A stretch of DNA of 64,000 bases from Acidobacteriota bacterium (GCA_019244185.1 JAFATB010000019.1:248001-312000), one strand, 5' to 3'; positions 4,733-18,936 are shown, counted from the stretch's first letter. The notes: generated by a model from the sequence alone, not told the origin. Numbers and translations are program-made.

Positions 4733-5965
4733 ATGGTCCTCTTCAACTACGCCACTAAAGAGATCACGGCCAAGATCGTCTATTACGGCCCCGGTCTCTG
4801 CGGCAAGACGACGAACCTGCAGTTCGTGTACGACTCGCTGCCGTCGAACAACAAGAGCAAGATGCTCTCGCTGGCGACGAAGACGGACCGCACGCTCTTC
4901 TTCGACTTCCTCCCTCTCGACCTCGGCAAGATCCGCGGCATGCGCACCAAGCTTCAGCTCTACACGGTGCCCGGCCAGGTCTACTACAACTCGACGCGCC
5001 AGCTCGTGCTCAAGGGCGCGGACGGAATCGTATTCGTCGCCGACAGCCAGGATTTTGCGCTCGATGCAAACCTCGAATCGATGCAGAACCTCGAGGACAA
5101 CCTCAAGCGCCAGGGCGTGCGCCTCCGCGAGATGCCGCTCGTCGTGCAGTACAACAAACGCGATCTCCCGAACGCGCTGCCGGTCGCCGAGATCGAGCGC
5201 GAGCTGAACAAGCAGAAGGTGCCGTCGTTCGAGTCGGTGGCGACGTCGGGACTCGGCGTCGAGGAAACGCTCAAAGGCATCACGCAGCTCGTGCTCGCCC
5301 ACCTCGTGAAAAAGTACGGACTCGAAGGCGCCGAGCCGCTCGAGCGCGAGATCCAGATCCTCAACGCACCCACCGCCGCACCCGCAACGTCGGAGTCGCT
5401 GTGGGACGACGACGACGAGCCGTTCGGCGCGCCCGCGACGCCGCCGCCCGCCCCGCGCGCACCCGCGGTATCCGCTGCATCCACCGCACCGGCTGCTGCC
5501 TCGCGACCTGCACCGCCGCCACCACCACCGCCCGCGCCGACGCTCTCGCCGTTCGCTCCCGTGAACGAGCCGGAGTTCGATCTCGACGACGCCGATCACG
5601 CGGCGAACGAGCACATCCCGCTCGTGGCCACGGAGCTCGTCGGCGGCGGCAGCGCGCTTCCCGAGCTTCCGCCGCTCGAGCCGTTCGGCCGCGACGCCGT
5701 CTCGGATTACTTCAACGCGGATCCGGTCGAGGTGCCGACGACGTCCATCGAGATCCCGCTGCCGCAGGGTCTTCTCGACTCGCTGCCGATCCTCGGCGAG
5801 CAACCCGCCGCGACGACCGTCGCCGCGCGTCCGCCGCAGGAACGCCGCGCGAACGACGGCCTCGTGAAGGAAGTAAGCATCCCGCTCAACCTGACGATGG
5901 ACGAGATCCGCCAGCATCGCCGCCTGCGCCTCAAGATCACGCTCGACGTGAATCTTTTGCCGTAG
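4733..5965 (+). CDS. mglA: MglA-type small GTPase with long Pro/Ala-rich C-terminal tail
   Basis: 410 residues. The GTPase domain occupies about residues 1-195: P-loop GPGLCGKTT at 19-27, switch/G3 region LYTVPGQVYYN where MglA-type proteins have TxPGQ, and G4 NKRD near residue 142. Canonical MglA is about 195 residues and controls cell polarity or gliding together with a roadblock-domain GAP (MglB). Here a tail of roughly 215 residues follows: acidic and Pro/Ala-rich, then a conserved-looking end (MDEIRQHRRLRLKITLDVN). No MglB homologue is adjacent. The start is the ATG at 4733, the first in frame; the preceding 70 bases separate it from a divergent gene. The role in polarity is inferred from the family. 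Confidence 0.85.
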   Translation: MVLFNYATKEITAKIVYYGPGLCGKTTNLQFVYDSLPSNNKSKMLSLATKTDRTLFFDFLPLDLGKIRGMRTKLQLYTVPGQVYYNSTRQLVLKGADGIVFVADSQDFALDANLESMQNLEDNLKRQGVRLREMPLVVQYNKRDLPNALPVAEIERELNKQKVPSFESVATSGLGVEETLKGITQLVLAHLVKKYGLEGAEPLEREIQILNAPTAAPATSESLWDDDDEPFGAPATPPPAPRAPAVSAASTAPAAASRPAPPPPPPPAPTLSPFAPVNEPEFDLDDADHAANEHIPLVATELVGGGSALPELPPLEPFGRDAVSDYFNADPVEVPTTSIEIPLPQGLLDSLPILGEQPAATTVAARPPQERRANDGLVKEVSIPLNLTMDEIRQHRRLRLKITLDVNLLP

Positions 5966-6947
5966 CCTGTTGTTCGTCTGCGATCACGGAGGAGTGGTCG
6001 AGTGGTTTAAGGCAGCGGTCTTGAAAACCGCCGTACGGGCAACCGTACCGTGGGTTCGAATCCCACCTCCTCCGCCAATCGCCGGTTTCCGCTGCTTGCT
6101 TGATGAGGTGGAAGGGCGAACGCATTCCAAAGTCGAGACTTCCGTCTCGCACGGTGCAGTTCGAAACGAGCAGTCGCAGCAACTTCGCTCGCTCGGGTGG
6201 TGATTGCGTAAGGTACTCATCACGTGCGGCTTGCAGGAGTTCGAACTGCTCGCGAGCTCGGTCAACCAACTCGTCCGTCGTCACGCACGGCACTTCGATG
6301 GCGAGCTGCGATCGTAGCCTCCGTTCTTCCTTCCGCCAGGCGTCGGAGCGCTCGCGCCAGAAACTCTCTGTGATGCGGCCGGTGAGCTTGTCCTCGTACG
6401 CCTGCGCCTGCAGACATGAAAGCTCCGTCAGGCGCGCCTGGGCGCGCGTGGCGCTTGCTGCTGCGGCGCTCCTCGTCTCGTCGTAGGAGGCCGCGAGGTC
6501 ATCGAGGAGCCAACTGCTCACCGCCTCGTCTACGGTGAGCGTCGTGAGGAGCGCGATGGTTTGCTCCTCGAAGGTGCGCTCCGGGTAGTACGTGCGCCGC
6601 TCGCACCCGGTGCAGAAGTAGTACGTGTACTTCCCCTTCTTCAGATCACCGCTGAGAAGACCGTTGCACGCGGCGCAGCGCAGGAGTCCGGCGAAGGTGA
6701 ACTCGTGCGCTCGCGTCTTGGGCTTGCTCCTGAAGCCGAGCGCGTACTGGACTTGGTCGAAGAGGTCGCGCGTGATGAGCGGCTCGTACTTACCCAGGTA
6801 CGTCGTGCCACCCCACGTGAACTCGCCCACGTACGCGGTGTGCTGGAGGATGCGCGCAAGCGCGCTCTTTTGGATGGGCGCGCCGTAGCGTCCGCGCAGG
6901 CCAAGGTCACGACCGATCTTCGCGTGCCATCGCGCAAGGTTGACCAC
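5937..6947 (-). pseudogene. Remnant of a large serine recombinase lacking its catalytic domain
   Basis: An open frame of 336 codons from a GTG at 6947; an in-frame stop lies four codons upstream (6957-6959). It begins within the recombinase domain (KSALARILQHTAYVGEF) and continues with the zinc beta-ribbon (LLRCAACNGLL ... YYFCTGC) and a coiled coil (residues 155-245), all typical of large serine recombinases. The N-terminal resolvase domain with the nucleophilic Ser is absent, so this is not an active enzyme. The last 45 or so codons read antisense through tRNA-Ser and into the tail of the GTPase gene, so the original C-terminus probably ended near 6080. Its position against the tRNA suggests that this recombinase, or its ancestor, inserted the island here. 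Confidence 0.8.
5988..6077 (+). tRNA. tRNA-Ser (anticodon TGA)
   Basis: A 90-nt class II tRNA. Acceptor GGAGGAG (5988-5994) pairs with CTCCTCC (6067-6073), discriminator G, and CCA is encoded. The anticodon stem GCGGT/ACCGC encloses CTTGAAA, giving anticodon TGA. A long variable arm (GTACGG/CCGTAC) and T arm GTGGG-TTCGAAT-CCCAC are clear. It marks the left boundary of the accessory island. Confidence 0.97.
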
Positions 6948-7183
6948 AGGTGCACCTCAAGGTCAGTGGCCTTGCGGAACTGCTGTGGTGCCGCCTCGTG
7001 AAAGTACTCCTCGAACGTCTCGGGAAGTTCTGTCGCGTCCGCGAGTGCTTCATCCAGGAGGCGCGGATTGAGCGCGTAGAGCTCGCGACGTCGCAGGTGG
7101 CGACGAACGACTTCTGCCTGCTCGTGCCGGGTGGCGATGGCCGCTTTCAGGCGCTCCTGTTTGGTGAGGTGAAACCATGACAT
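6641..7183 (-). pseudogene. Possible broken ORF just upstream of the recombinase remnant
   Basis: From the ATG at 7183 about 80 codons look coding (MSWFHLTKQERLKAAIATRH, then many Arg/Glu/Leu residues with amphipathic pattern, ELPETFEEYFHEAAPQQF). Beyond about 6940 the same frame is only the shadow of the recombinase frame. The two frames meet near 6950. This could be a separate small gene truncated by a deletion, or an unrelated 5' part fused out of frame to the recombinase. I do not recognise the protein. Confidence 0.3.
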
Positions 7184-7288
7184 GACCTCACTATCGCGTG
7201 GGTGCAGGTATATATCCACCACCTGACACACTGGTTACATCCCTCGTCGGGTGCTTTATAAGAACCTGAAGCGTCCCAATCGTGATGA

Positions 7289-8338
7289 ATGATGGGACAC
7301 AAGCACCTGCTGCAATTTCTCGGCATTCTCTACGACTCGCCCAAGGCGATGGGTATCGAGGAGTTTGCACGAACAAATCGGAGGTTCACGGCACGCTCCC
7401 TCTACCGCTGGCAAGCAGAGCTCAGCGACGATCTGCTCTTCTTCCCAAGCGTCGCGTTCCACTCTCTTGGGCTTTCGACCGTTCATCTCTTCATTGATGA
7501 TCCAGGTTCGGCGTGGCTGGAGTTTCCGTATGCGATCCGAGGCGAGTGGGTCGTCTCGCGGCCCGGCCAGCGCACGCTCTACCTGCACTGCCTCGTTCCC
7601 TGCGGCCACGAGCTGGAACTCGCTGGCGTCCTGCGCGACGCAGAAGGCATCACGGCAGCGAAGATCACCAGCATCGAGTCACGTGATGGCTGGCAGGTGC
7701 TGCGCGACTTCGGAAGCAATCCGCTCAGCCGCGCTCCAGCGGTCACTCGTGATCAGCACGTGTGGGACGTCGTAGAACGTCTCCCGCTCCTCATCGCCGT
7801 CATCTTCGAAAGTGTAGAGCACGGCCAGAGTCTGCCGGCGATCTGGGAATCGATCTACCAGCGTCTCGGCAAGCGAACGTGGGAGTACCTGCCACGCTTC
7901 GCCCGTCGGCTTCCGACGAACGGCAAGGCCTACGTGAAGGAATGCTTTGCACTGCTCAACCACACCGGCCTCTTTCGGCAGAACATCATCCGGTATCGGC
8001 CGCTCAACGCCATCGGCACACCCATGTTCCTCCAAGTCGAGGGCGAGTTAAGCGCAATCATCAACGCCTTCGCGCAGCACGCGCCGAGCATCGACGTCTT
8101 CCCCATCACAAATGACTCCGCTCTCCTGCGCGTGGTGAGTACTCACGCACTCACGCAGCACGTCTTCAGCACGCTCCCGAATCTTCCGCGCATCAGCACA
8201 TGGCACTTCGTCGACACTCCACGCAACGAGTGTGAGCCAGTACGGCCGCGATTCGCCTACGAACTACTCTTCGATCCAGCAACCACCGAATGGGTCTTCC
8301 CTACCGAGATGCTCAAGAAGTTCCGAGGTGGACCATGA
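7289..8338 (+). CDS. Unknown 349-residue protein, first gene of the HerA-nuclease operon
   Basis: I do not recognise a family. The first 45 residues look like a winged-helix or HTH segment (LLQFLGILYDSP ... IEEFARTNRRFTARSLYRW). The rest alternates beta strands and helices, with DQHVWDVVERLPLLIAVIF and a second alpha/beta part; the layout resembles two-domain transcriptional regulators but this is a loose impression. It begins with two consecutive ATG codons. Its stop overlaps the start of the next gene (ATGA), so it is translated together with the coiled-coil protein and, one base further on, the HerA-type ATPase. Codon use is more mixed than in flanking chromosomal genes. Likely partner or regulator of the ATPase (inference). 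Confidence 0.7.
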   Translation: MMGHKHLLQFLGILYDSPKAMGIEEFARTNRRFTARSLYRWQAELSDDLLFFPSVAFHSLGLSTVHLFIDDPGSAWLEFPYAIRGEWVVSRPGQRTLYLHCLVPCGHELELAGVLRDAEGITAAKITSIESRDGWQVLRDFGSNPLSRAPAVTRDQHVWDVVERLPLLIAVIFESVEHGQSLPAIWESIYQRLGKRTWEYLPRFARRLPTNGKAYVKECFALLNHTGLFRQNIIRYRPLNAIGTPMFLQVEGELSAIINAFAQHAPSIDVFPITNDSALLRVVSTHALTQHVFSTLPNLPRISTWHFVDTPRNECEPVRPRFAYELLFDPATTEWVFPTEMLKKFRGGP

Positions 8339-8736
8339 CGGAGAAAAAAGAGTTGGGTGCGCAGGCGATGACGGCCGCGCTGCACGGCGAGAAGACGGCC
8401 GTGCTTGAACTACAACACGCGATGATCGGCGAAGAAATCAAGACGCGCGAAGCGATCAAGACGCGCAACCTCGAAAGCATCCATGCAGACGAGGCAACGC
8501 TGCGCGAGGAACTGCAGCAAGTTACGCCCGCGCATGAAGGCGCAGCCGACGATCCGAATGCACGCAAGGAGCGACACCTCCTCGAGCGCCAGGAGACCGA
8601 ACTCCATCGTGAGGAGCGCGCGGAAGAACGCGCCGCATGGACCGATGAGCAACCGCTCACGCGAGAAGACCGCGAGATCCACAAGACCACACTCGAACAG
8701 GAGCAGCGACGCAAGCGCATCGATGAGCTGATGTGA
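8335..8736 (+). CDS. Small charged coiled-coil protein, middle gene of the HerA-nuclease operon
   Basis: 133 residues, start at the ATG that overlaps the preceding stop by four bases; an ORF opening at 8290 would overlap far more. Almost the whole chain is Glu/Arg/Lys-rich heptad-like helix (ELQHAMIGEEIKTREAIKTR; LLERQETELHREERAEERA; TTLEQEQRRKRIDELM). No catalytic motif. Such proteins usually act as adaptors or oligomerisation subunits. It ends one base before the TTG start of the ATPase. Function unknown; association with the ATPase is inferred from coupling. Confidence 0.7.
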   Translation: MTEKKELGAQAMTAALHGEKTAVLELQHAMIGEEIKTREAIKTRNLESIHADEATLREELQQVTPAHEGAADDPNARKERHLLERQETELHREERAEERAAWTDEQPLTREDREIHKTTLEQEQRRKRIDELM

Positions 8737-8737
8737 C

Positions 8738-10669
8738 TTGCTACCCGACCTTTTCCGCAAGCTCAAGCCGTTGTACGGAACAGCGATCGATCTCTTGTGG
8801 ATCGAGTATCAAACCGCCGATGTTGAACGAAAGCGCGAGATCGAGGAGTACCTCACACTCCTCGGCGTCAAGAAGCTCGGCCTCGCGGTTGGTGATGAGA
8901 AGCTTGTCCTCGACGCACCGCCGGCAGCGCTCATCGGTGAAGGCGACTTCACGATCGGGATGGTGAGCTACCCGAGCATCCCACCGTATCCGTTCCGTGT
9001 TAAGCGCAACGAGCTGCTCAGGCACATCTTCATCCTCGGGCCAACAGGAACAGGCAAGAGCACGCTGCTCCTCAACATTCTCGTGCAGATTCAAGCTGCA
9101 CGGATTCCGTTCATGGTCTTCGACTTCAAGCGCAACTATCGCTGCCTCTTGCGTGCTTCAGGCAACGAATCGCTGATTGTGTTCACTGTTGGACGCAATA
9201 CCGCATCGCTGTCGATCAACGCGCTCACACCGCCGCCCGGCGTGGAGTTCGAAGAATGGGCCGAAGCACTCAGCGACATCATCAGCACCAGCTACCTCCT
9301 CCTGCAGGGAGCACGCAACGTGATGAAGGAAGCGTTACTCCAAGCGCATGCGCAACACGGCAACACAGCGACACTGTTGCACGCGCACGCGTTGCTCGCG
9401 CACGAGTTAGACGCAACGAAGAGCGGCAGCCGACGCTACGGGTGGCTGGAGTCGTCCACGCGCAGCTTGGAGGAGCTGACGAAGGGCAGCTTCGGTCGCG
9501 CGTTAAACGCAACGAACGGCACGCCAGTCGCTGACATGCTCACACGTTCTGTCGTGTTCGAGCTACAGGGATTCGGTGATGACCAGAAGCGATTCTTCTG
9601 CCTCCTCTGGCTGGAAATTATCCTGCTCCTGCGCAAGAGCAGCAGCGCGCCCCGCGAGCAACTCCAGCACGCGCTCATCTTCGATGAAGGCCACAACGTG
9701 TTCCCGCGCGAGCGACCTGGCGAAGTGAGCGTCCCGGCGCGGCTCGCGCGTGAGGTGCGCGAGTTCGGCGAAGCAATCATCGCGGCAACGCAGCAGGCCG
9801 ACGTGAGCGAGAGCCTGATCGCGAACAGCGGATTCAAACTCATCCTGCGCTGCGACTACCCGAAGGATGTGACGTTCGCGAGTCAGCTCCTCCAGATCGA
9901 TGCGCGCTGGCTGCCGAAGCTCCCCATCGGCACGGGCATCGCGAGACTTCCCGTCCGGTTCTATTCGCCCATCCTCTTCACCTTTGGCGTGCAACCAATC
10001 AAGAACCTCGCAATTTCTGACGAGGAAGTGCACGCGCAGTGGTTGCGCACACACCTACCCATACCAAACTCCGACGTTACGTCAGCCATCGGGCAGTTGG
10101 GCGACCGCGAGGAGGCGCTCCTGCGCGACGTGGCGCTAACGCCGATCAGTCCGATCACGCATCGCTACCAACGCCTCGGCTGGCACATGGAGGTCGGCAA
10201 CCGCACGAAAGACGCGATCATCAAGCGCGGTCTCGCGCGCTTCGATGCAATCAGCACACCCCGCGGTCAGGTGAAGATCCTTACGCTCACGCCCGACGGC
10301 ACTGCGCTGCTTGCGTCACGCGGCATGACGCTGAAGCAGACACGCGGCGGCGGTGCCGAGCATGAGTTCTGGAAGCATGAACTGCGTACCATCCTCGAAC
10401 GCGCCGACTGGCTGGTCGCAGAGGAGTTTGCGCTCGGCGGTGGCAAGAGTGCTGACCTGCGCGCTGATCGCGGTGATCGTGCGCTCTTCGTCGAAGTCGA
10501 AACGGGACGGTCGGACATCGCTGCGAACGTCGCGAAGTACCCAAGCGACGTTGACCTCGTGATGTTCTTCACGAGCGCCGAGGTCGCGCAGCGCTACCGC
10601 GACCTCGTGCTGCTCGATCGGCCTGGTACGCGCTGCCTGACGCCGGCCGACCTGCACCAACTCACGTAG
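8738..10669 (+). CDS. HerA/VirB4-type DNA-translocating ATPase fused to winged helix and PD-(D/E)XK-like nuclease domain
   Basis: 643 residues from a TTG start one base after the preceding stop. Residues about 60-430 form a HerA/FtsK-superfamily ATPase: Walker A GPTGTGKST at 101-109, FMVFDFKRNYR shortly after, Walker B LIFDEGHN with D316/E317, and the sensor segment IIAATQQADVSESLIANSGF. Residues about 440-530 look like a winged helix (GDREEALLRDVAL ... LTLTPDGTALLASRG). Residues about 540-630 have a nuclease-like pattern: HEFWKHELRTILERA helix, D573, then E586-x-E588 in LFVEVETG, matching D-(X)n-E-X-E/K enzymes with Glu in place of Lys. Known relatives pump or process DNA with NurA-type nucleases; here both functions appear in one chain. 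Role may be defence, conjugation or element maintenance (inference). Confidence 0.82.
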   Translation: MLPDLFRKLKPLYGTAIDLLWIEYQTADVERKREIEEYLTLLGVKKLGLAVGDEKLVLDAPPAALIGEGDFTIGMVSYPSIPPYPFRVKRNELLRHIFILGPTGTGKSTLLLNILVQIQAARIPFMVFDFKRNYRCLLRASGNESLIVFTVGRNTASLSINALTPPPGVEFEEWAEALSDIISTSYLLLQGARNVMKEALLQAHAQHGNTATLLHAHALLAHELDATKSGSRRYGWLESSTRSLEELTKGSFGRALNATNGTPVADMLTRSVVFELQGFGDDQKRFFCLLWLEIILLLRKSSSAPREQLQHALIFDEGHNVFPRERPGEVSVPARLAREVREFGEAIIAATQQADVSESLIANSGFKLILRCDYPKDVTFASQLLQIDARWLPKLPIGTGIARLPVRFYSPILFTFGVQPIKNLAISDEEVHAQWLRTHLPIPNSDVTSAIGQLGDREEALLRDVALTPISPITHRYQRLGWHMEVGNRTKDAIIKRGLARFDAISTPRGQVKILTLTPDGTALLASRGMTLKQTRGGGAEHEFWKHELRTILERADWLVAEEFALGGGKSADLRADRGDRALFVEVETGRSDIAANVAKYPSDVDLVMFFTSAEVAQRYRDLVLLDRPGTRCLTPADLHQLT

Positions 10670-10781
10670 GTGTTTCTTCGCCGACACGCCGCGAGGAGCT
10701 CGATTCTCGCGAGCAGGAGGTGTTTCACATCTCCGATAACGTCCGATGCAAGAAAGAGTGTGAAACCGCTCGCCGCTTGTG

Positions 10782-10827
10782 AAAACCATTACGAGAAGCC
10801 GCTGCATGCAAGGTACGAACAAGCGTG
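10782..10827 (+). repeat. 46-nt upstream repeat, copy 1 (candidate operator/promoter)
   Basis: Aligns without gaps to 11254-11299: the first 20 nt and the block of 15 nt near the end are identical, with 7 variable nt between. It contains two similar half-sites, TACGAGAAG at 10790 and TACGAACAAG at 10814, 24 bp apart. It lies directly at the start of the first S24-fold gene. Likely a shared binding site for an island regulator; a promoter is possible. Confidence 0.6.
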
Positions 10828-11241
10828 CCACGACGAAGCACAGGCGCACGCTCCACCCGACGCACGGCGTCTGGATCAACGATCGTTCAAGCGATCCGCA
10901 TTCTTTCCCAAGGCAAGCCGCTGATCGAGGCCGACGAGTGTGCCATCGTTCCCGCTGACAAGATCGGCCCTGGAGAACTCGTGTTTCGTGTCGCCGGCGA
11001 CATGCCAGACGTCGGACTGGCTGATCGCGACCACCTCATCGTGGAGCCGCGCACCAATGGTGACGCCGCAACCGGCGAGTTCGTCATCGCCACGCTAGGC
11101 AATGACGCGTTCGTCGGCCGGTACTGGAGGAAGCACGGTACACGCTCACTGCTCGACGGCGCGTTCCACGTCATCGCCCAAGGCTCGGCCCTACGGGTGC
11201 TCGGCGCGGTGACGCTCGTGCTCCGCGACGAAACCCACTGA
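10825..11241 (+). CDS. S24/LexA-fold protein lacking both catalytic residues
   Basis: 138 residues from a GTG inside the upstream repeat; the true start may be a little later because no good ribosome site is visible. Residues about 35-135 follow the S24 peptidase (LexA/UmuD) pattern: LVFRVAGDMPDVGLADRDHL where LexA has SGMSMKDIG, and GEFVIATLGNDAFVGRYWRK where LexA has VTVKRL. The nucleophilic Ser position is missing and the Lys is replaced by Gly, so self-cleavage is not expected. There is no HTH domain. It is a stand-alone S24 fold, possibly a dimerisation or inhibitor partner of the longer S24 protein that follows. Confidence 0.68.
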   Translation: MPRRSTGARSTRRTASGSTIVQAIRILSQGKPLIEADECAIVPADKIGPGELVFRVAGDMPDVGLADRDHLIVEPRTNGDAATGEFVIATLGNDAFVGRYWRKHGTRSLLDGAFHVIAQGSALRVLGAVTLVLRDETH

Positions 11242-11253
11242 AAACACGCGCCA

Positions 11254-11299
11254 AAAACCATTACGAGAAGCCGGCTCGATCAAGGTACGAACAAGTGTC
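11254..11299 (+). repeat. 46-nt upstream repeat, copy 2 (candidate operator/promoter)
   Basis: Second copy of the element at 10782-10827, same length, both TACGA-type half-sites conserved at the same 24-bp spacing. It ends about 100 nt before the ATG of the two-domain S24 protein. Presence in front of both S24-fold genes and nowhere else I could find suggests co-regulation. Confidence 0.6.
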
Positions 11300-11398
11300 T
11301 TGAGAGAACCGGTCGACACGCCGTCCTCCTCAGCGCGATTCGCGAAGCATCGACCTTCCTTCTCCCGAGCGCAAACACCCTGCGGAAAGGAATTAGCG

Positions 11399-12403
11399 AT
11401 GGATGATTGCGAATACCTCGGCACGCTCGAACGCGATCCTGATGGGACGGTGCGCATCCGCCGACCGCACATCCCACAAGCACCAGCACGCACGAAACGA
11501 CCAATCCAAGTCCCCTTCAGTGTGGAGCGGCAGATCGCACGCGGCAACGTGTACGCGACCACCGTCATCGGGGACAGCATGCAACCCACCATCCTCGACA
11601 ACGACGTCGTCATCGTCTCCACGAGCCGATCGCCGCGGCAACGGGACATCGTCGTCATCAGGGCCAACGGGCCGCACCCGGTGTACGGCCCCATCGACGG
11701 GTACGTGTGGCGGTACCACGCGCGTGCCGGTGAGACGTACTTAGGCAAGGACAACCCGCGCTACCGCGATCGTCAACCCGTGATGCGCGAGGAGATCGTC
11801 GGTGTCGTCACGCGCATCCTTCCCCGTGCCTACCGCGACGAGCAGGAAAACTACCTGCGCATTCAGCAACACCGCGCGCTCTCACGAGCATGCAACATAA
11901 CCGACCCACGGGACCTCGGGTTCTACCGGGAACGCGATCTACGCGAGCTCCGCGCGATCTTTCAGATCCCCGCAGATGAACTTGTCGACGGGCGGCTTCC
12001 GTGGGGTCTCTTCCGCGCAACCGCGATCACCGATCATCCGCACGTCGGCATCACGACGCAGGAGGTACTGACCGTCGAGCCCACGATCGAGAGCTGTACC
12101 GGACAACTCGTCGTTAAACGCAACGAGGACGGAGAGACGATCCTCGGCGTGCTGCAGCGCGACGGCCTGCGCTCACGGCATCCTGGCGAGTTCTTCATCG
12201 AAACCGAAGAGCGGCGCATCAACGTGTCACGCAACGACGGCCACTATCCCCTCTACCGAGCCATCGCCGTCATCAAGCGCATCCAACGGCGCGGCGTCGT
12301 CATTCGCCTGCCGCAATGGACGGTCAGCGTAACGGCACAGTCGGCGACTCGCCCCCAGGCAGAGGAACGAGCACGCGTGCGCGGCACCGGAGGAAGACGA
12401 TGA
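11399..12403 (+). CDS. Protein with two tandem S24/LexA-like folds
   Basis: 334 residues. The ATG at 11399 is preferred because GGAAAGGA lies just upstream; an in-frame TTG at 11300 lacks this. Domain 1 (about 50-145) keeps the S24 nucleophile motif VIGDSMQPTILDNDVV with Ser60, and the fold continues through DIVVIRANG and GYVWRYHARAGETYLG, but Lys is replaced by Trp104 at the usual dyad site. Domain 2 (about 203-300) repeats the pattern (LFRATAITDHPHVGITTQEV; GQLVVKRNEDGETILGVLQ) without the Ser. No HTH is seen in the N-terminal 45 residues. The stop overlaps the next start (ATGA). Probable regulator of the element, perhaps acting with the HTH protein downstream (inference). Confidence 0.72.
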   Translation: MDDCEYLGTLERDPDGTVRIRRPHIPQAPARTKRPIQVPFSVERQIARGNVYATTVIGDSMQPTILDNDVVIVSTSRSPRQRDIVVIRANGPHPVYGPIDGYVWRYHARAGETYLGKDNPRYRDRQPVMREEIVGVVTRILPRAYRDEQENYLRIQQHRALSRACNITDPRDLGFYRERDLRELRAIFQIPADELVDGRLPWGLFRATAITDHPHVGITTQEVLTVEPTIESCTGQLVVKRNEDGETILGVLQRDGLRSRHPGEFFIETEERRINVSRNDGHYPLYRAIAVIKRIQRRGVVIRLPQWTVSVTAQSATRPQAEERARVRGTGGRR

Positions 12404-12867
12404 GCCACGAGTGCACGCGCCGCAGCCTGCTCCAACTCCTCGGCATCACGATCGGCGCCGCCGCCATCCCCGCACGCGCACGAACCCTAGACGTGGAACC
12501 AAGCCGCGATGAACCGATTGAGGCCGAGCAACCGTTGTCAAGTCCCACACGGTTGGAGCGATTCATCCGGTCACATGGCATCAAGCCCGCGCACCTTGCA
12601 CGCGAGTCGGGCTACTCACGACAACACCTCCTCCGCCTGCGCTTTGGTCGCATGCGCCCATCGCTGACCTGCATTGCTGCACTCGTCGTCGCGCTGCGAC
12701 GGCTCACGCAACGACACATCACCGCTAAAGACCTCTTCGAGCCCGGCGATATTCACCTGGCGTGGCGCGAGGTAAGCGGACAGCACGAGGAGCACGACCA
12801 CGAACAACTGCGGGCCGCATTTGGTCGACGAACGTTGCTCGCATTCCTCAACGGAGCACGATCATGA
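12400..12867 (+). CDS. XRE-type HTH protein with N-terminal Tat-like hydrophobic segment
   Basis: 155 residues, start taken at the ATG that overlaps the preceding stop. The N-terminus CTRRSLLQLLGITIGAAAIP has the twin-Arg plus hydrophobic layout of a Tat signal. Residues about 50-110 form a Cro/C1-type HTH (RLERFIRSHGIKPAHLARES, SRQHLLRLRFGRMRPSL). A DNA-binding domain behind an export-type leader is unexpected; either the segment is a false signal or a membrane anchor. It is coupled to both neighbours by ATGA overlaps, so it probably works with the S24 and ribbon-helix-helix proteins in control of the element. Confidence 0.7.
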   Translation: MSHECTRRSLLQLLGITIGAAAIPARARTLDVEPSRDEPIEAEQPLSSPTRLERFIRSHGIKPAHLARESGYSRQHLLRLRFGRMRPSLTCIAALVVALRRLTQRHITAKDLFEPGDIHLAWREVSGQHEEHDHEQLRAAFGRRTLLAFLNGARS

Positions 12868-12932
12868 GCCGCAAGCATTACGTGTCATTCAAGCGCGGAT
12901 GCGACCTCGGGAGACGACATGAGTCCCGTTGA
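12864..12932 (+). CDS. Very short ORF (22 codons) bridging two regulator genes
   Basis: ATG overlaps the preceding stop (ATGA) and the frame ends 14 nt inside the next gene. The peptide (MSRKHYVSFKRGCDLGRRHE...) is basic. It may only serve translational coupling across the gap, or be chance. No homologue comes to mind. Confidence 0.25.
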   Translation: MSRKHYVSFKRGCDLGRRHESR

Positions 12933-13383
12933 CGCACAGCACATTCGCGAGCTCTTCCTCCACAGGCAACCCTCCTACCGGTTGAGCGAAGCGGCTCGGC
13001 TCCTTAGCATGACGCGCGGTCGGCTAGAGCGCGAAGCACGCGCCGACCAGGAGGACGCGTATCGTGTGAACGGCCGCTGGCGCTTCACGTGGCGACAACT
13101 AGCGTATCTCGCGTTTCGCCGCTGGTCACTGAGCGACATCCACGAGGCGCTCGGCATTGATGCTACTGCAGTGCTGCCGCCACTCCTCGCGCTGCGCACG
13201 ATCTCCATTCGGCTGCCGGAGTACCTCGTGCAGGCCATCGAGCACTTCGCCGTTACCGACGACACCACCGTGGACAACTGGCTGCACCATGAGCTGGTCG
13301 ACTTTGCCGGCACGGTGGTCGATCGGATGGAGAATGTCATCCCTGGTTACCGGCGCGCATACCTCTTTCCGGGTCAGGAGTAA
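12919..13383 (+). CDS. Small DNA-binding protein: HTH plus ribbon-helix-helix-like C-terminus
   Basis: 154 residues. The first 75 residues look like a MerR/excisionase-type HTH (RLSEAARLLSMTRGRLEREA ... VNGRWRFTWRQLAYLAFRRW), in which a DNA-binding winged helix reads one site. Residues 95-135 look like a ribbon-helix-helix (TISIRLPEYLVQAIEHFAV). It is the last gene of the rightward island operon and is convergent with the membrane protein beginning at 15061, with only 16 bases between. An excisionase or copy-control role would suit an integrated element, but this is inference. Confidence 0.6.
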   Translation: MSPVDAQHIRELFLHRQPSYRLSEAARLLSMTRGRLEREARADQEDAYRVNGRWRFTWRQLAYLAFRRWSLSDIHEALGIDATAVLPPLLALRTISIRLPEYLVQAIEHFAVTDDTTVDNWLHHELVDFAGTVVDRMENVIPGYRRAYLFPGQE

Positions 13384-13399
13384 GTTGCGCGATTACGGA

Positions 13400-15061
13400 C
13401 TACGCGGCGGGCTGCTGATTGAACACAATCGCTTCGAAATCACGCAGCGGATCTTCGGCCCGGCCTCCTCGTATCGAATGCATCATGTGCGGAATCTTGT
13501 CGAAGGTGCCGTAGGCAGTTCGGAGTGCGGCCCGATACGCGGCATCTTGCTCCGCATCAAACGGATCGCCTCTGCGTAGCGCTTTCGCCAGCACCTCGGC
13601 GAAGACCGTCTGGTTCAATCGGCGCAGCCTGAAGTACGTGTCGAAGACGAGATGCGACATGCGTGACTTGTAGCTCTCGCTCAACTTGGACGAGGTCAGG
13701 ACATCTAGCAGAATGCGGGCGAGGCAGATGATGGCGCTCTTCGGAATGTTGTGGTTCTCGTACTCATCGTTGTTCTGGATGTTGAAGAGCTCCGCGTCGT
13801 CGGTGAGGCGCTCGACCGCCAGAATCCAATCTCGGCAACGGGACACCATCTCGTAGATGAAGTAGGTGTAACGTGTTTCGTAGAAGCTGTCTGACGGAGT
13901 GTGGCGATCACGCGGATCGTGGTTCTCGATCATGCGAGTCGTGAGCACCTCGTAGTAGAGGAGCCACATGTGATGGCGGATGCGTCCGAACAACGTCGCA
14001 GTCACCATCAGATCGAAAAACACTATCGCGGCGTAGAGCGGCGAGTCCCAACAGCCGTCCTCGCGAAAGTGATCGTCTGCGGTCAGGTTGTTCGGATCGG
14101 AGTCATGCTCCCGGCGCAGCGCCAAGAGTTCTTCGTTTGCGGCATCACCGACCGGCTTGTAGATGCTGAGTCGTTCCGAAACGTGCGGATCATTGAAGAA
14201 GTAACTGAGAAGCGGCTCCCCAGAGGAGAACTGCGCGGCACGTCCATGCCCGGCACCGGGGTTGTCACGAAGCTCGCGATGAAGAACGCTGCCGGAATCA
14301 GCTAACAGCGCCCGCATGTAGTGTTTCAGGAACTCGAACATGTCGCGGTTCGGAGTGGCGAGCAGTTTGAAGGCGAGGTACGGCCGTCCTTTCGCCACTG
14401 CCTCGACGAACTCCCGTGAGCGCTGAATTCGACTGAGGAGTTGTTCTGCGCCCTCCCGCCCCGTTGCGGTTTGCGGCAGATAGCGAACCAAGGGCGACGC
14501 GAGCTTTCTTGCGACCGCTCGTATGCGATGTGGTCGGCGGGCGGCCGCTACCGTGTCCGCGTTCAGTCGAAGAGGTGCAAGTTCTTCGAGGTACTCGGCA
14601 GGAGATGGAGCGATCCAGCGCCGCACTCGTTTCCGCCACGAGTCTGTCCCGGCGAGTCGGCTGAGCCGTTCAAGATGACGGTCGACGACGTGCGCTGCTT
14701 CCGCATAGTTTTGGTTCCAAAGCAACTCCTCCATGAGAGCGTAAAGGCGGGGAACTGCGCGGCGCGACAGCCGTGAGAAGCGAAGGTGCATGCCGACTAC
14801 GGAGACCGTCAGCAGCAGAAGGACGAACGAAGCCCGTTCAGGCGTGAGATTCCACCGGCTCAATCCGAGGCGGGGTGTCAAGCCGAACGCGGCGAAGAAC
14901 GAGTAGAACTGGAGGTAACCGATTCCGATGCCGCCCAAGATCAAGAGCAGCCAATCTGTCGGACGGAAGCGGACACCGAGGTCGAGCTGCCGCGCACGAG
15001 GCATCAGTTGGTACGCAGCGACTGCGAGACCGATGACAGCGACCAAGGTGTCGAGAGTCAT
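13400..15061 (-). CDS. Unknown membrane-anchored protein, 553 residues
   Basis: Three hydrophobic segments lie near the N-terminus (about residues 5-20, 33-58 and 78-100: LVAVIGLAVAAYQLM; WLLLILGGIGIGYLQFYSFF; ASFVLLLLTVSVVGMHL). The remaining 450 residues are predicted soluble and helical, with many Arg, Leu and aromatic residues and no recognised catalytic motif. I do not recognise the family. The organisation (short membrane anchor, large cytoplasmic helical part, accessory island) is common among cell-suicide effectors and among membrane sensors, but nothing here proves either. It is separated from the four-gene operon upstream by 320 bases, so it probably has its own promoter. Lower GC than the chromosome. 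Confidence 0.65.
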   Translation of the reverse strand: MTLDTLVAVIGLAVAAYQLMPRARQLDLGVRFRPTDWLLLILGGIGIGYLQFYSFFAAFGLTPRLGLSRWNLTPERASFVLLLLTVSVVGMHLRFSRLSRRAVPRLYALMEELLWNQNYAEAAHVVDRHLERLSRLAGTDSWRKRVRRWIAPSPAEYLEELAPLRLNADTVAAARRPHRIRAVARKLASPLVRYLPQTATGREGAEQLLSRIQRSREFVEAVAKGRPYLAFKLLATPNRDMFEFLKHYMRALLADSGSVLHRELRDNPGAGHGRAAQFSSGEPLLSYFFNDPHVSERLSIYKPVGDAANEELLALRREHDSDPNNLTADDHFREDGCWDSPLYAAIVFFDLMVTATLFGRIRHHMWLLYYEVLTTRMIENHDPRDRHTPSDSFYETRYTYFIYEMVSRCRDWILAVERLTDDAELFNIQNNDEYENHNIPKSAIICLARILLDVLTSSKLSESYKSRMSHLVFDTYFRLRRLNQTVFAEVLAKALRRGDPFDAEQDAAYRAALRTAYGTFDKIPHMMHSIRGGRAEDPLRDFEAIVFNQQPAA

Positions 15062-15382
15062 AAACCTTGGAATGTTCTAACAGTTGTGGCTGCTCGGACG
15101 TTCCCGCCGGGCTGCGTTAGGCCGCCGAGAGCTCGAAAGTCCCGACCCGGTGCGGTACTAGCCTGATTGGATAGCCGGCGCAAGTGGGGGCGCCACGAGG
15201 CTCGTCGTGCTCGTGGCAAGCTGATACGCTTCGCCAGCGTAGGAGCCGTGTGGTCCATCCTGGAGGAGTACGCGTACAGGCGTCCTGCAGCGCGATACGG
15301 GAGGAGCGACCCGTTCCTGAGTCGGATGGTGTATGCAGCAAGGCCGGAATTCGGATAATGCCATCGGGAATCAAAGCGATGC
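15062..15382. other. Intergenic stretch without a supported gene
   Basis: About 320 bases between the end of the Gfo/Idh/MocA gene and the start of the membrane protein gene. Short ORFs exist in several frames but none has convincing codon use, a ribosome site or a recognisable product. It should contain the terminator of the upstream operon and the promoter of the membrane protein; I could not pick out either with confidence. Confidence 0.5.
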
Positions 15383-16426
15383 CTATTCCGACGGCCCGCG
15401 CTTTTCACGCCCTGCTTTCGCTACCCCATCCTCGCAGTCCGCGGCAATCCGCTCCAATACTTCCAGCACTGGAAGGCTATTCTTAAGGGGCGACTCCGAC
15501 GGTGTGCCGTGTCGCACGCTGTGACAGAAACTATGAAAGGCGTTCGCATAGCCAGCAGCATCCATACCACCTCGAGCCACGGGCAGCGAATACTCCACAT
15601 GGGCCTTGCCGCCGATGGATTCATCACGAATGTTCGCAATGCCCTCGCCGACGAACCGGGCGTCCCGATGATCTTTGACAACACCCAGGATGCCGGCACC
15701 AGTTACAAATTCTGTGCTCGTCTCGAATTTGTTCCAGTAATTACCAAGATCAAGGTCCGCACGAGCGCCGCGACTGAAGTCCAGTCCGACCTGCAAGGCG
15801 AACCGCCCATTCGCAAACAGCGTAATTCCGCTGGTAACACAGCGTGGTGGGCCAAATAGATCCAATGCCATCTCCACAGGATGGACACCGACAGAATAAA
15901 GATAGCTTCTCACTAACGACATGTTCCACATGCTGCTGCGTGGCTTAGCTGTCAAGAATCGAAGCTTCGCATACTGGATCGGACCATATCTCTCCACAAT
16001 CGCCCGCGTCTGCCGATACACCGTGCCGAAGCGGAAGTTATAATCCACAAATATTGTGCACCGCGCTTCTGTCGCGGCCTCTATCGCGGCAAGTTCGCGC
16101 AATTGGCTCGGGTGCTCCGCTGGCGGCTTTTCTATGAATGCATGAAGTCCGCGAAGAAGCGCGTATCGAGCCACGGCAACGTGGAGATGCGGCGGACCTG
16201 CTACCACGATTGCATCAGCCGCGATCGAATCTAAACACGTTTCCCATGATCCAGCATAAGCACGCACGTTGTAACGTTGTTCGAGTCGTTGCGCCTTCTC
16301 TTCGGTTCTGCAACACATCGCCACCATCTGTACCCCGTCAGCCACTTGGAGCATCGGCAACAAGTTCTCTTGCATATGCTCGCCGAGTCCAAGGATGGCT
16401 ACACGAATTGGCGACACGTGGCTCAC
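15383..16426 (-). CDS. Gfo/Idh/MocA-family NAD(P)-dependent oxidoreductase
   Basis: 347 residues. The start is the GTG at 16426, which overlaps the preceding stop (GTGA); a longer frame from 16474 would run 50 bases into that gene. Rossmann motif VAILGLGEHMQENLLPML at the N-terminus, family signature AFIEKPPAEH near residue 105, and the C-terminal alpha/beta domain follow. Members oxidise or reduce hydroxyl or keto groups of sugars, inositols or related metabolites. Last gene of the four-gene leftward operon (MOSC, AurF-like, TIR-PAS-LuxR-PNP, this gene). Substrate unknown; the setting suggests tailoring of a specialised metabolite. Confidence 0.85.
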   Translation of the reverse strand: MSHVSPIRVAILGLGEHMQENLLPMLQVADGVQMVAMCCRTEEKAQRLEQRYNVRAYAGSWETCLDSIAADAIVVAGPPHLHVAVARYALLRGLHAFIEKPPAEHPSQLRELAAIEAATEARCTIFVDYNFRFGTVYRQTRAIVERYGPIQYAKLRFLTAKPRSSMWNMSLVRSYLYSVGVHPVEMALDLFGPPRCVTSGITLFANGRFALQVGLDFSRGARADLDLGNYWNKFETSTEFVTGAGILGVVKDHRDARFVGEGIANIRDESIGGKAHVEYSLPVARGGMDAAGYANAFHSFCHSVRHGTPSESPLKNSLPVLEVLERIAADCEDGVAKAGREKRGPSE

Positions 16427-18936
16427 GTCGCTTCGTCTCCCGCACGGAAGTACGGACTCAGAACGTCCTCGCATATTTTTGTGAGGACGGCCACCTTCGC
16501 CTCCCGAGCACCACTCGACCGATTGACCGACAAGTCAAAACTCACTTCGCGATCTCGCTCGTTCGGCCCGCGTATGTAGTCTGTCGCGAAGTGCAGCGCG
16601 CTAAACGACACGTCGTGATCCTCCATCCGGTTGTGTGTCGCTACGGCGTTCGCCATACGCGAAATTTCGTTGTCGATGGAGTTGGCGGTCAGCTTCGCTG
16701 AGAGATCCCGCTGGTTATAATCCTCCTCAAGGACTGTCGGTACCGACACATGACAACCGCTATCAAGGTGAGGGAACAGCGCCAGCACACCATTACGTGG
16801 CGCTGTGACCGCATGGACCACACGGTCGTGTTGCAATAACAAATACTCGGACGGGCAAAACATCCGCGAGTAGAGATCCTCCGGCGAAGTCAGCGCGCCG
16901 AGCTTTCCAACGTATAGCACTTCACGCGCGCCAAGCTCGCACACGGCACGCACGACTTCTTCGGAGATCGAGCCCCAGTAACTGTATCGAACGCCGAGCA
17001 GAGTTAAGAATCGCCCGCCGGGAAGCGAGTAACGATACGAGCCATAGTATGGCGTCTCGACCGGCGCTCGAACTTGTGTCGCCCAGCGCGCGTCATCGAG
17101 ATATTGCTTGATCGGCTCGACGTAGCCCAATAGTACGCTATCACCACCGTCAACAAGGTGCGCACCAAGTCCGGTTCTTGTCGGCAATCGCCTCTCAGCC
17201 AACGGATACCGAATTATGCTGATCCGCTCGTCGGCATGCGTCGTTTCTTCGAAGACAATATATCGAACGAGCGAGGCGTAATGCATGACGTAGTCGTGGC
17301 CGGGCGTGACGCACACGAGTAGTCCATCGGGCGCGCCCGGATTGCGACGTCGAAAGAACACTGGCCTGATGTGGTTGAATGCTTTGCTCTGGTGCGACTG
17401 TTCGCTTTCAAGCGGCACGAGGCTTCCCCAGCCATGCTGCACGGCCACCTGCGACACATCATCAGGAAAGACTCCGTGGACCTCTATCTGACCTCCGCGC
17501 GTTATTACGTCCTTGATGTCATCGGCCGGCACCTTGCGATGCACGTAGTCGTTCAGCGCACGATACATGGTGTGGTCGAGCGAGCGGCACACCGGCAAGC
17601 CGGACCATCCCTCAATAATTCGGTCGGCATACGCGGCCAATTCCGGACTTGCTGTCCCCGAGAACGCATACGCGCTGTCGGCCCCGGGAACATCGTCTGC
17701 GCTCGTCACGACGTTAGGCTGCGGCTCGGCGTCGAGGTAGCTCGTCCGGCGCGGCCCCGCCGGGACTGCAAACGTTGGCCCAAACAGGGCCAGTGGAAGG
17801 CCGCTTCTGATCGCGGCCGTTATGACGTCATTGTCGTTCGAACACTGCAGCTTCTGCCTAATCGTCTTCATGTGCGCCACTACTACTGCGCGCGCCAGAT
17901 TCGTATGAGTCGCGATTAGATCTGGCGATTGCAGGCTCAGCATGCCCTTCAGTACTTGGACTTCCTCGGACGACAACTGCTCGTTCCCGAACAGCGGCCC
18001 CAACGACAGTCCTTGTGCCGCGCCAGAGCCGAGCGCAGAGCGCGGCACCATGATCTGACCGGATATGTCGACGAAAAACCCTTGCAGGCCGATGCATCGC
18101 CCGCTTGCGTCGAACAGAGGCCGTTCCGTAACAAGAATGTCAGCCATCCGATCGACCATGATTTCTGTCTCTTGCACATTCACTCGCGGCGGCGCGTTGC
18201 CGGAGATCACTTGGCGATCACCCGCTTGAAAAAAAGGCGCGAGTGCGCGCCACGGCATGACATCGTCGGTTTTTCCGAGCATCGCCGCTGGGGAATCGAA
18301 ACCGGCGGCCTGCGCGTACCTCTCGTTGGCGGCGATATAACGGAGACTCGTGTCTTTTGCCCACGTATAGATGTCAGGGATATTCGCGGTGCCGGCGACA
18401 CCGAAGCTGTTCGGCACTCGGGCCACCAAGTGCGTTTCTGCGGACGGCTGCAACGTTGAACGGACTGCGGCGATCACCTGCTGAATTGCTTGTTCGCCGA
18501 TGTAATCCCGTTCGGCTTGCGTCAGATTCGGCGCGTTAGGCGCCAGATCAACATGGAGCGGGCTCGGCCACTTGGCAAGCACGATCTCTGGGATCCAGCG
18601 TGCACCGGCGGGCAGAATGAGTATTGGTGAGAGATCGCCTCGATCTACCCACCAGCGGACACTCCGATACAGGTCATCATCGGTGAATTCATGCATCGCA
18701 CCCGGCGTGCAGACCAGCAACCAAATGCAGGGGGTCCTGTCGCCTAGGTCGAGGACACCTCGTAGCGCCCTGGCAGCCGGCACGCCCGATCCAGGCCGGA
18801 CGGAGAGCACAAATGATTCTCTTGACGTGCCTCCGCTGACAACCACGGTGCGTCCTTGCAATGAATCATTAAGCCAGTCCGCTACTCGCTGACCATCATC
18901 CGCGCGATAGACGATGAAGACTGGCAATTCCAACAT
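16423..18936 (-). CDS. Multidomain TIR-like / PAS / LuxR-HTH / nucleoside-phosphorylase-like protein
   Basis: 837 residues. Residues 5-160 resemble a TIR fold: VFIVYRADDGQRVADWL opening strand-helix, IWLLVCTPGAM core strand, then YRSVRWWVDRG and PILILPAG. The usual catalytic Glu is not obvious. Residues 186-292 are a PAS domain (DIYTWAKDTSLRYIAANERY ... VTERPLFDASGRCIGLQGFF). Residues 320-380 match a LuxR/GerE HTH (LSSEEVQVLKGMLSLQSPDL ... VVAHMKTIRQKLQ). Residues about 600-830 look like a nucleoside phosphorylase fold: EVVRAVCELGAREVLYVGKL, VSVPTVLEED, and SIDNEISRMANAV where that family has a DMEtxxxA motif. Six bases separate it from the AurF-like gene; its stop overlaps the next start. 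A sensor-regulator or nucleotide-cleaving effector is plausible. Confidence 0.75.
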   Translation of the reverse strand: MLELPVFIVYRADDGQRVADWLNDSLQGRTVVVSGGTSRESFVLSVRPGSGVPAARALRGVLDLGDRTPCIWLLVCTPGAMHEFTDDDLYRSVRWWVDRGDLSPILILPAGARWIPEIVLAKWPSPLHVDLAPNAPNLTQAERDYIGEQAIQQVIAAVRSTLQPSAETHLVARVPNSFGVAGTANIPDIYTWAKDTSLRYIAANERYAQAAGFDSPAAMLGKTDDVMPWRALAPFFQAGDRQVISGNAPPRVNVQETEIMVDRMADILVTERPLFDASGRCIGLQGFFVDISGQIMVPRSALGSGAAQGLSLGPLFGNEQLSSEEVQVLKGMLSLQSPDLIATHTNLARAVVVAHMKTIRQKLQCSNDNDVITAAIRSGLPLALFGPTFAVPAGPRRTSYLDAEPQPNVVTSADDVPGADSAYAFSGTASPELAAYADRIIEGWSGLPVCRSLDHTMYRALNDYVHRKVPADDIKDVITRGGQIEVHGVFPDDVSQVAVQHGWGSLVPLESEQSHQSKAFNHIRPVFFRRRNPGAPDGLLVCVTPGHDYVMHYASLVRYIVFEETTHADERISIIRYPLAERRLPTRTGLGAHLVDGGDSVLLGYVEPIKQYLDDARWATQVRAPVETPYYGSYRYSLPGGRFLTLLGVRYSYWGSISEEVVRAVCELGAREVLYVGKLGALTSPEDLYSRMFCPSEYLLLQHDRVVHAVTAPRNGVLALFPHLDSGCHVSVPTVLEEDYNQRDLSAKLTANSIDNEISRMANAVATHNRMEDHDVSFSALHFATDYIRGPNERDREVSFDLSVNRSSGAREAKVAVLTKICEDVLSPYFRAGDEAT

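What the first reader, a model, noticed from the sequence alone, without database searches (positions are those of the whole stretch)
7289..10669. HerA-type ATPase fused to winged helix and PD-(D/E)XK-like nuclease, in a three-gene operon
Seen: Walker A/B motifs of a HerA-type ATPase, then winged helix, then D573...E586xE588 in one protein, coupled to a coiled-coil protein and an unknown 349-residue protein by an ATGA overlap and a one-base gap. Known: HerA works with NurA nuclease, and HerA-type ATPases are found in several anti-phage systems and in conjugation. Inference: a self-contained DNA-processing machine that could be defensive or serve element transfer. The Glu in the usual Lys place of the nuclease motif is notable.
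Basis: partly seen in the sequence, partly recalled or inferred. Interest (0 to 1): 0.72.

Follow-up and report, generated by a model that had tools for sequence, protein, structure and literature searches.

The report
Motor-nuclease from an integrating mobile element
A bacterium carries two copies of an operon for a ring-type DNA pump with a DNA-reading and a DNA-cutting domain in one protein; complete copies belong to mobile DNA that inserts into tRNA genes, so it probably handles the mobile DNA or its competitors, though which is untested.

Summary
Window 7289-10669 encodes 349-aa, 133-aa coiled-coil and 643-aa proteins, joined by ATGA and a one-base gap. The 643-aa protein has a HerA/FtsK-type motor (Walker lysine is K107, not K108) and a confidently modelled MarR-like winged helix plus PD-(D/E)XK core (pLDDT 86.5). 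The 'odd' Glu is not conserved; a lysine in the next helix (K600), a known lysine migration, probably replaces the missing one.

The operon is not free-standing. A second copy in the same genome lies in a 38-kb element inserted in tRNA-Met (47-bp att repeat, one mismatch). That element, one in another acidobacterium and one on a metagenomic contig share a cassette, tyrosine recombinase - DNA methyltransferase <> 349 - coiled coil - motor-nuclease, plus a second motor-nuclease paralogue. The window copy has lost recombinase and methyltransferase. No relaxase or type IV secretion genes were found. Archaeal relatives sit beside tyrosine recombinases, once also beside DISARM genes. Between the two copies the motor is 90-98% identical, but the winged helix (63%), nuclease (72%) and 349-aa protein (54%) have diverged.

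Best reading: a sequence-addressed DNA translocase-nuclease of an integrative element. Own-DNA processing versus attack on invaders is unresolved.

The parts
6641..7231 (-). Truncated copy of the divergent 146-aa gene (intact at C6:174076-174516); homology ends near 6927, where the 3' part of a serine recombinase follows
   Evidence: 82.6% aa over 86 residues to the C6 gene; DNA homology 6927-7184
7289..8338 (+). 349-aa protein; HTH-like N terminus; weak model suggests two HTH plus beta-alpha-beta-beta-alpha-beta units (Lrp-like repeat, inference only); fast-diverging, probable DNA-recognition or sensor partner
   Evidence: ORF; 53/32/33% identity to C6, G027 and viral-contig homologues; AF2 pLDDT 46.7, not reliable; no Pfam, PADLOC or PHROG match
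8335..8736 (+). 133-aa charged coiled-coil-like linker protein
   Evidence: ATGA overlap with the 349-aa gene; 92% identical to the C6 copy, 43% to G027; dN/dS 0.06
8738..10669 (+). 643-aa HerA/FtsK-type ATPase - winged helix - PD-(D/E)XK nuclease, TTG start
   Evidence: DUF87 5.5e-7; PADLOC mad8 9.2e-16, HerA, DndH; AF2 and Foldseek
9038..9064 (+). Walker A, GPTGTGKST, residues 101-109, K107
   Evidence: sequence; G104, G106, K107 invariant in 5 diverse homologues including archaea
9674..9688 (+). Walker B, LIFDE, residues 313-317
   Evidence: D316 and E317 invariant
10103..10318 (+). Winged helix, residues about 456-527, MarR-like
   Evidence: AF2 secondary structure H16-27, H33-40, H44-56, E60-67, E70-77, H79-87 of residues 441-643; MarR structures among Foldseek hits
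10352..10666 (+). PD-(D/E)XK-like nuclease domain, residues 539-643: H542 (helix 1), D573 (strand 2), E586 (strand 3), K600 (end of helix 2)
   Evidence: AF2 topology; Foldseek VC1899, Can2, Cdn1, AF1548, Bax1, EndoMS; H542, D573 and E586 invariant in 5 diverse homologues
10825..11241 (+). LexA/UmuD-type S24 protein (138 aa), downstream gene shared with C6 only
   Evidence: lexA model 2.2e-4; 88% aa to C6
11300..12403 (+). S24 peptidase-domain protein
   Evidence: PF00717 3.1e-15; PHROG repressor and UmuD matches
12316..12867 (+). HTH_26 protein (183 aa)
   Evidence: PF13443 4e-4; about 80% aa to C6
12919..13383 (+). 154-aa HTH-like protein; homology to the C6 element ends at its stop
   Evidence: homology to 13382

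Best explanation
The 643-aa protein is a DNA motor of the HerA/FtsK superfamily that carries its own winged-helix DNA reader and PD-(D/E)XK nuclease. Together with a rapidly evolving partner (349 aa) and a coiled-coil linker it forms a sequence-addressed dsDNA translocase-nuclease. It belongs to the backbone of an integrating mobile element, and most likely acts on the element's own DNA alongside its tyrosine recombinase and methyltransferase: loading at a specific site, pumping duplex DNA and cutting it during excision, resolution or transfer. Shown: genes, conservation, predicted fold of the C-terminal module, element membership of the full copies, absence of recombinase and methyltransferase from the window copy. 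Inferred: hexameric pumping, the active site, the partner's role, and own DNA as substrate.
For: Second copy inside a 38-kb tRNA-Met element with a 47-bp att repeat, one mismatch. Same cassette in G027 and on a metagenomic contig with different cargo. All three full elements also carry a second, ancient motor-winged-helix-nuclease paralogue, beside a tRNA-proximal integrase in C6 and G027. Tyrosine recombinase next to family members in separate lineages: Halobiforma, G626 and G399, where the genes overlap by 8 bp. The recombinase's closest plasmid relatives are haloarchaeal. Divergence is concentrated in the DNA-reading and DNA-cutting parts while the motor is kept. AF2/Foldseek nuclease core.
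Against: The window copy keeps an intact operon although it has no recombinase 2, methyltransferase or second motor nearby, which suits a function independent of mobility. One archaeal relative lies directly downstream of DISARM genes drmA, drmB, drmC in a defence island. No convincing membrane segment in the three proteins and no relaxase or type IV secretion gene found, so direct transfer by this protein is doubtful. No activity has been shown.
Confidence: 0.43

Rival explanations
1. Anti-invader machine carried by the element: the winged helix and 349-aa protein recognise sites on phages or competing elements, the HerA-type ring captures and pumps that DNA, and the fused nuclease destroys it. 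Recognition is by sequence rather than by methylation.
For: Motor closest to defence HerA/DndH/mad8 models and to solved anti-phage HerA structures. Recognition parts diversify while the motor is conserved. DISARM and SspE-like genes next to a haloarchaeal relative. Operon intact in the window without the mobility genes. [quoted passage not shown]
Against: Every complete cassette is with a tyrosine recombinase and a second motor paralogue, i.e. element backbone, not a mobile defence cassette shuffled among islands. Very rare: the 349-aa family is in 2 of 396 phylum genomes, none of 72,556 plasmids and one viral contig. In the window locus only the motor, plus a weak capH match to a neighbouring HTH protein, hits a defence model.
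Confidence: 0.36
2. Restriction-modification proper: the cassette's beta-class methyltransferase marks self DNA, and the motor-nuclease complex cuts unmarked DNA at the same site.
For: The methyltransferase is adjacent in all three complete copies, 69% and 51% identical, and matches type II methyltransferase models.
Against: The window operon has no methyltransferase of its own; the only match to this family in the genome is in the C6 element, while the window's recognition parts have diverged from those of C6.
Confidence: 0.12
3. Relic: the window copy is a decaying fragment with no present function.
For: Truncated serine recombinase (no N-terminal resolvase domain), truncated 146-aa gene, no recombinase 2 or methyltransferase.
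Against: All seven genes of the block are open; dN/dS 0.06-0.28 against the C6 copy, though this mostly reflects history before any recent loss.
Confidence: 0.09

Closest known systems
HerA-NurA / anti-phage HerA-DUF4297 and HerA-SIR2 type complexes
   Same: HerA-type motor coupled to a nuclease or effector; best solved-structure relatives are HerA/DUF87 proteins (8yho, 4d2i, 8xau)
   Different: Here the nuclease is fused through a winged helix on the same chain, is of the PD-(D/E)XK rather than NurA type, and comes with a coiled-coil protein, a 349-aa partner, a methyltransferase and a recombinase
'HerA-FtsK capture' systems and their mobile-operon ancestors (PMC10853773)
   Same: HerA/FtsK motor with HTH and REase domains; clade-1 mobile operons also carry a tyrosine recombinase
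   Different: No Orc/Cdc6 or D5 helicase in the cassette; fusion order motor-winged helix-nuclease and methyltransferase neighbour are not described in the passages read
Archaeal dark-matter families arCOG00280 (HerA-like helicase) and arCOG03166 (AAA+ ATPase fused to HTH and RecB nuclease), PMC4158269
   Same: arCOG00280 is common in archaeal islands rich in integrases; arCOG03166 has the same plan ATPase-HTH-nuclease, 'likely involved in defense (or some plasmid gene)'
   Different: arCOG03166 is AAA+, not HerA/FtsK; membership of our protein in arCOG00280 was not testable here
MADS mad8 ATPase
   Same: Best PADLOC match of the motor (9.2e-16; 9.3e-26 for the G626 relative)
   Different: mad8 covers the motor only (314 aa); no other mad gene in the window operon
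FtsK-XerCD and Streptomyces TraB (from general knowledge)
   Same: FtsK-superfamily motor plus winged helix reading DNA sites; FtsK acts with tyrosine recombinases, TraB moves dsDNA of integrative elements
   Different: No N-terminal membrane anchor in the 643-aa protein; fused nuclease present; coupling to the recombinase is only inferred from gene order

Membership tests
HerA/FtsK-superfamily motor | Walker A and B of the HerA clade, DUF87 profile above cut-off | tested here: met
   DUF87 30.3 bits against cut-off 23.2; motifs invariant in diverse homologues
HerA/FtsK-superfamily motor | Hexameric ring and DNA translocation | not testable with these tools
   needs biochemistry
[quoted passage not shown]
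   AF2 pLDDT 86.5, D573 and E586 placed so; Foldseek to VC1899, Can2, AF1548; E-values modest, best 9.5e-5
PD-(D/E)XK nuclease | Catalytic lysine in motif III or migrated to the following helix | tested here: inconclusive
   Motif III position is Glu; K600 after the helix is conserved in the 5 closest sequences but not in two more distant archaeal ones
HerA-NurA | NurA nuclease partner | tested here: not met
   no NurA match in any operon protein or in the C-terminal module
MADS | mad1-mad8 gene set | tested here: not met
   only mad8 matches, on the motor; no other mad gene among 8 proteins scanned
DndFGH | DndF and DndG next to DndH | tested here: not met
   only a weak DndH motor match
DISARM | drmA, drmB, drmC | tested here: not met
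   none in the window operon proteins; they flank one haloarchaeal relative only
Integrative mobile element | Integrase and att repeats at a tRNA gene | tested here: inconclusive
   Met for the C6 copy; for the window copy no att repeat was found and its recombinase is truncated; G027 has the integrase at a tRNA but no att repeat was found in the stretch held
Conjugative element | Relaxase and type IV secretion genes | tested here: not met
   none among the C6 element proteins scanned with Pfam; no MobA/MobL in the genome; not every relaxase family was searched
Type II restriction-modification | Dedicated methyltransferase with the same specificity as the nuclease | tested here: inconclusive
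   adjacent in three complete copies but absent from the window copy; specificity not testable

The most novel reading that the evidence does not exclude
A portable FtsK-Xer-like machine shared by archaea and bacteria: a soluble HerA/FtsK motor whose winged helix reads sites on the element and drives or gates its zinc-ribbon tyrosine recombinase, with a built-in nuclease and a methyltransferase marking the element's DNA; each element carries two such motors.
Probability: 0.18. Interest if true: 0.75.

Novelty: new variant of a known kind. Interest (0 to 1): 0.5.

Why it matters
HerA/FtsK motors are shared by chromosome segregation, plasmid transfer, virus packaging and several bacterial immune systems, and how one became another is open. 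Here one protein joins motor, DNA reader and nuclease and sits, across archaea and bacteria, next to tyrosine recombinases, and once next to DISARM genes. That makes it a usable case for asking whether such machines began as mobile-element DNA processors or as defences. Two copies in one genome that share a motor but differ in the reading and cutting parts give a ready domain-swap test of specificity.

Tried and rejected
Free-standing three-gene defence cassette: rejected as a description, because complete copies have recombinase and methyltransferase attached and a second motor paralogue in the same element. Odd Glu as a new active site: rejected, E588 is not conserved (Ala in Halobiforma). 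Phage origin: no match in 50,697 phage records, and only one viral-collection contig, which carries ParB, SSB and ERF-like genes (by inspection). att repeat of tRNA-Ser in the window: none of 14 nt or more found. AF2 model of the 349-aa protein: pLDDT 46.7, unusable, so not searched. Solved-structure search for the 349-aa family: nothing meaningful. Repeats of the clt kind in the C6 element by 10-mer counting: nothing striking. Plasmid search with the second motor: no match. Distant motor relatives on E. coli, Lactococcus and Photobacterium plasmids lie with dynamin, HNH or DUF2357 genes and were judged too remote.

Full report
1. What is there. Window 7289-8338, 8335-8736 and 8738-10669 (+) encode 349, 133 and 643 residues with an ATGA overlap and a one-base gap. 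The 643-aa protein has Walker A GPTGTGKST at 101-109 (K107) and Walker B LIFDE at 313-317. It passes the DUF87 cut-off and matches HerA, DndH and mad8 models over the motor only; the best solved-structure relatives are HerA proteins. The 349-aa and coiled-coil proteins match nothing above chance in Pfam, PADLOC, NCBIfam or PHROGs.

2. The C-terminal module. AF2 on residues 441-643 with an alignment of four sequences gave pLDDT 86.5 and pTM 0.79: a winged helix (about 456-527), then helix 539-555, strands 559-567, 570-578, 581-588, helix 594-599, strand 606-611. This is the PD-(D/E)XK topology with D573 on strand 2 and E586 on strand 3. Foldseek against the PDB returned VC1899 (E 9.5e-5), the CRISPR ancillary nucleases Can2 and Cdn1, AF1548, the R2 retrotransposon protein, Bax1, EndoMS and many MarR proteins. 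Single members matched PadR, MmcB-like and REase_AHJR-like Pfam models weakly. H542, D573 and E586 are invariant in five diverse homologues, four of them archaeal or archaeal-type. E588 is Ala in Halobiforma; K600 is present in all five of the closest alignment but not in the two most distant. Migration of the motif III lysine to the next helix is documented for this superfamily (PMC1913061). I therefore read K600 as the probable catalytic lysine; this is not proven.

3. Where it lives. The same genome has a second copy at C6:174690-178079, 85% identical in the motor protein. The block window 6927-13382 is homologous to C6:174260-180798, about 81% identical in DNA over most of its length. The C6 copy lies in an element inserted in tRNA-Met: the 3' end of the tRNA (C6:152398-152474) recurs at C6:190533-190580 as a repeat of 47 matching bases with one mismatch. 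A second element, on RHKY01000013.1 (G027, another acidobacterium), shares integrase 1, a 735/756-aa motor-nuclease paralogue, a small secreted-type protein, a zinc-ribbon tyrosine recombinase 2, a methyltransferase and the three-gene operon. A third, on IMGVR_UViG_3300036781_000821, has recombinase 2, methyltransferase, the 349-aa gene and the motor in the same order, and the second motor about 15 kb away. The conserved unit is recombinase 2 - methyltransferase <> 349 - coiled coil - motor-nuclease. The window copy lacks recombinase 2, methyltransferase and the second motor; its 146-aa divergent gene is cut and followed by the C-terminal part of a serine recombinase next to tRNA-Ser. No att repeat of that tRNA was found.

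4. Distribution. Conserved-peptide scans with the motor protein found only G027 and Halobiforma in a collection of 84,980 species. The 349-aa family is in 2 of 396 genomes of the phylum. The broader motor-winged-helix-nuclease family reaches archaea. Family members lie beside tyrosine recombinases in Halobiforma, G626 and G399, where the two genes overlap by 8 bp. In G626 the gene order on one strand is drmA, drmB, drmC, motor-nuclease, recombinase, with SspE-like and TGT-like genes nearby. A motor-domain tree puts the first and second element motors in separate clades (support 1.0 and 0.9), both apart from the haloarchaeal clade.

5. Evolution of the two copies. DNA identity steps from about 0.6 in the 349-aa gene to 0.83-0.88 across the coiled coil and motor, falls to 0.65-0.73 across the winged helix and nuclease, and rises again to 0.84-0.94 over most of the S24 genes. 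By protein: motor segments 90-98%, winged helix 63%, nuclease 72%, 349-aa protein 54%. The same C-terminal part is faster against G027 too, but by about 2-fold in dN, against about 6-fold between the two resident copies. This fits selection or recombination that changes target recognition while keeping the engine; it does not say what the target is.

6. Mechanism. Established by family: HerA/FtsK motors pump duplex DNA, winged helices read it, PD-(D/E)XK domains cut it. Inferred: the three act in one ring, addressed by the winged helix and perhaps the 349-aa protein, whose weak model looks like two HTH plus ferredoxin-like units (not reliable). For own-DNA processing: element backbone, repeated recombinase linkage, two motors per element. 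For defence: an intact operon without the mobility genes, diversified recognition, DISARM neighbourhood in one archaeon, motor similarity to immune HerA proteins. A methylation-guided restriction system is less likely for the window copy, since the only methyltransferase of that family in the genome is in the C6 element. I put own-DNA processing slightly ahead (0.43 against 0.36).

7. Novelty. HerA/FtsK motors with HTH and REase domains, and mobile operons with HerA/FtsK plus tyrosine recombinase, are described (PMC10853773), as is an AAA+ ATPase-HTH-nuclease fusion in archaeal islands (PMC4158269). I found no description of this motor-winged helix-nuclease fusion with this five-gene cassette; the literature search was limited to open-access papers. 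I rate it a new variant of a known kind.

Noticed in passing
window 10782-10826 and 11254-11298; C6:178201 and 178667: A 45-bp repeat (AAAACCATTACGAGAAGCC...CAAGGTACGAACAAG) lies at the start of each of the two S24 genes in both genomic copies: probable shared operator or promoter of LexA/UmuD-like proteins.
   Followed up: partly
C6:154710-160135; G27 C96:26838-31294; viral contig 69110-72976: The second motor-winged-helix-nuclease paralogue (735-756 aa) has a small hydrophobic protein gene just upstream in all three elements, with further membrane or secreted-type genes: a possible membrane DNA-pump module without type IV secretion genes.
   Followed up: partly
C6:182312-184472 (L019 14312-16472): Element cargo with DUF6527, a JAB-ThiF fusion and an E2-family protein, i.e. 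a prokaryotic ubiquitin-like conjugation set; E2 and ThiF genes also lie near an integrase and a DUF87 gene on a Salinigranum plasmid.
   Followed up: partly
L057 (G626) 9043-17396: Haloarchaeal drmA-drmB-drmC followed on the same strand by a motor-winged-helix-nuclease gene and a tyrosine recombinase; possible extra DISARM component or element boundary.
   Followed up: partly
window 5937-6947: Serine recombinase reduced to its C-terminal domains, reading into the antisense of tRNA-Ser (5988-6077); N-terminal resolvase domain missing.
   Followed up: partly
L067 12238-12900: A SRAP (HMCES/YedK) gene follows the motor gene on the metagenomic contig, where the window and C6 copies have UmuD/LexA-like genes: both are SOS-type functions.
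   Followed up: no
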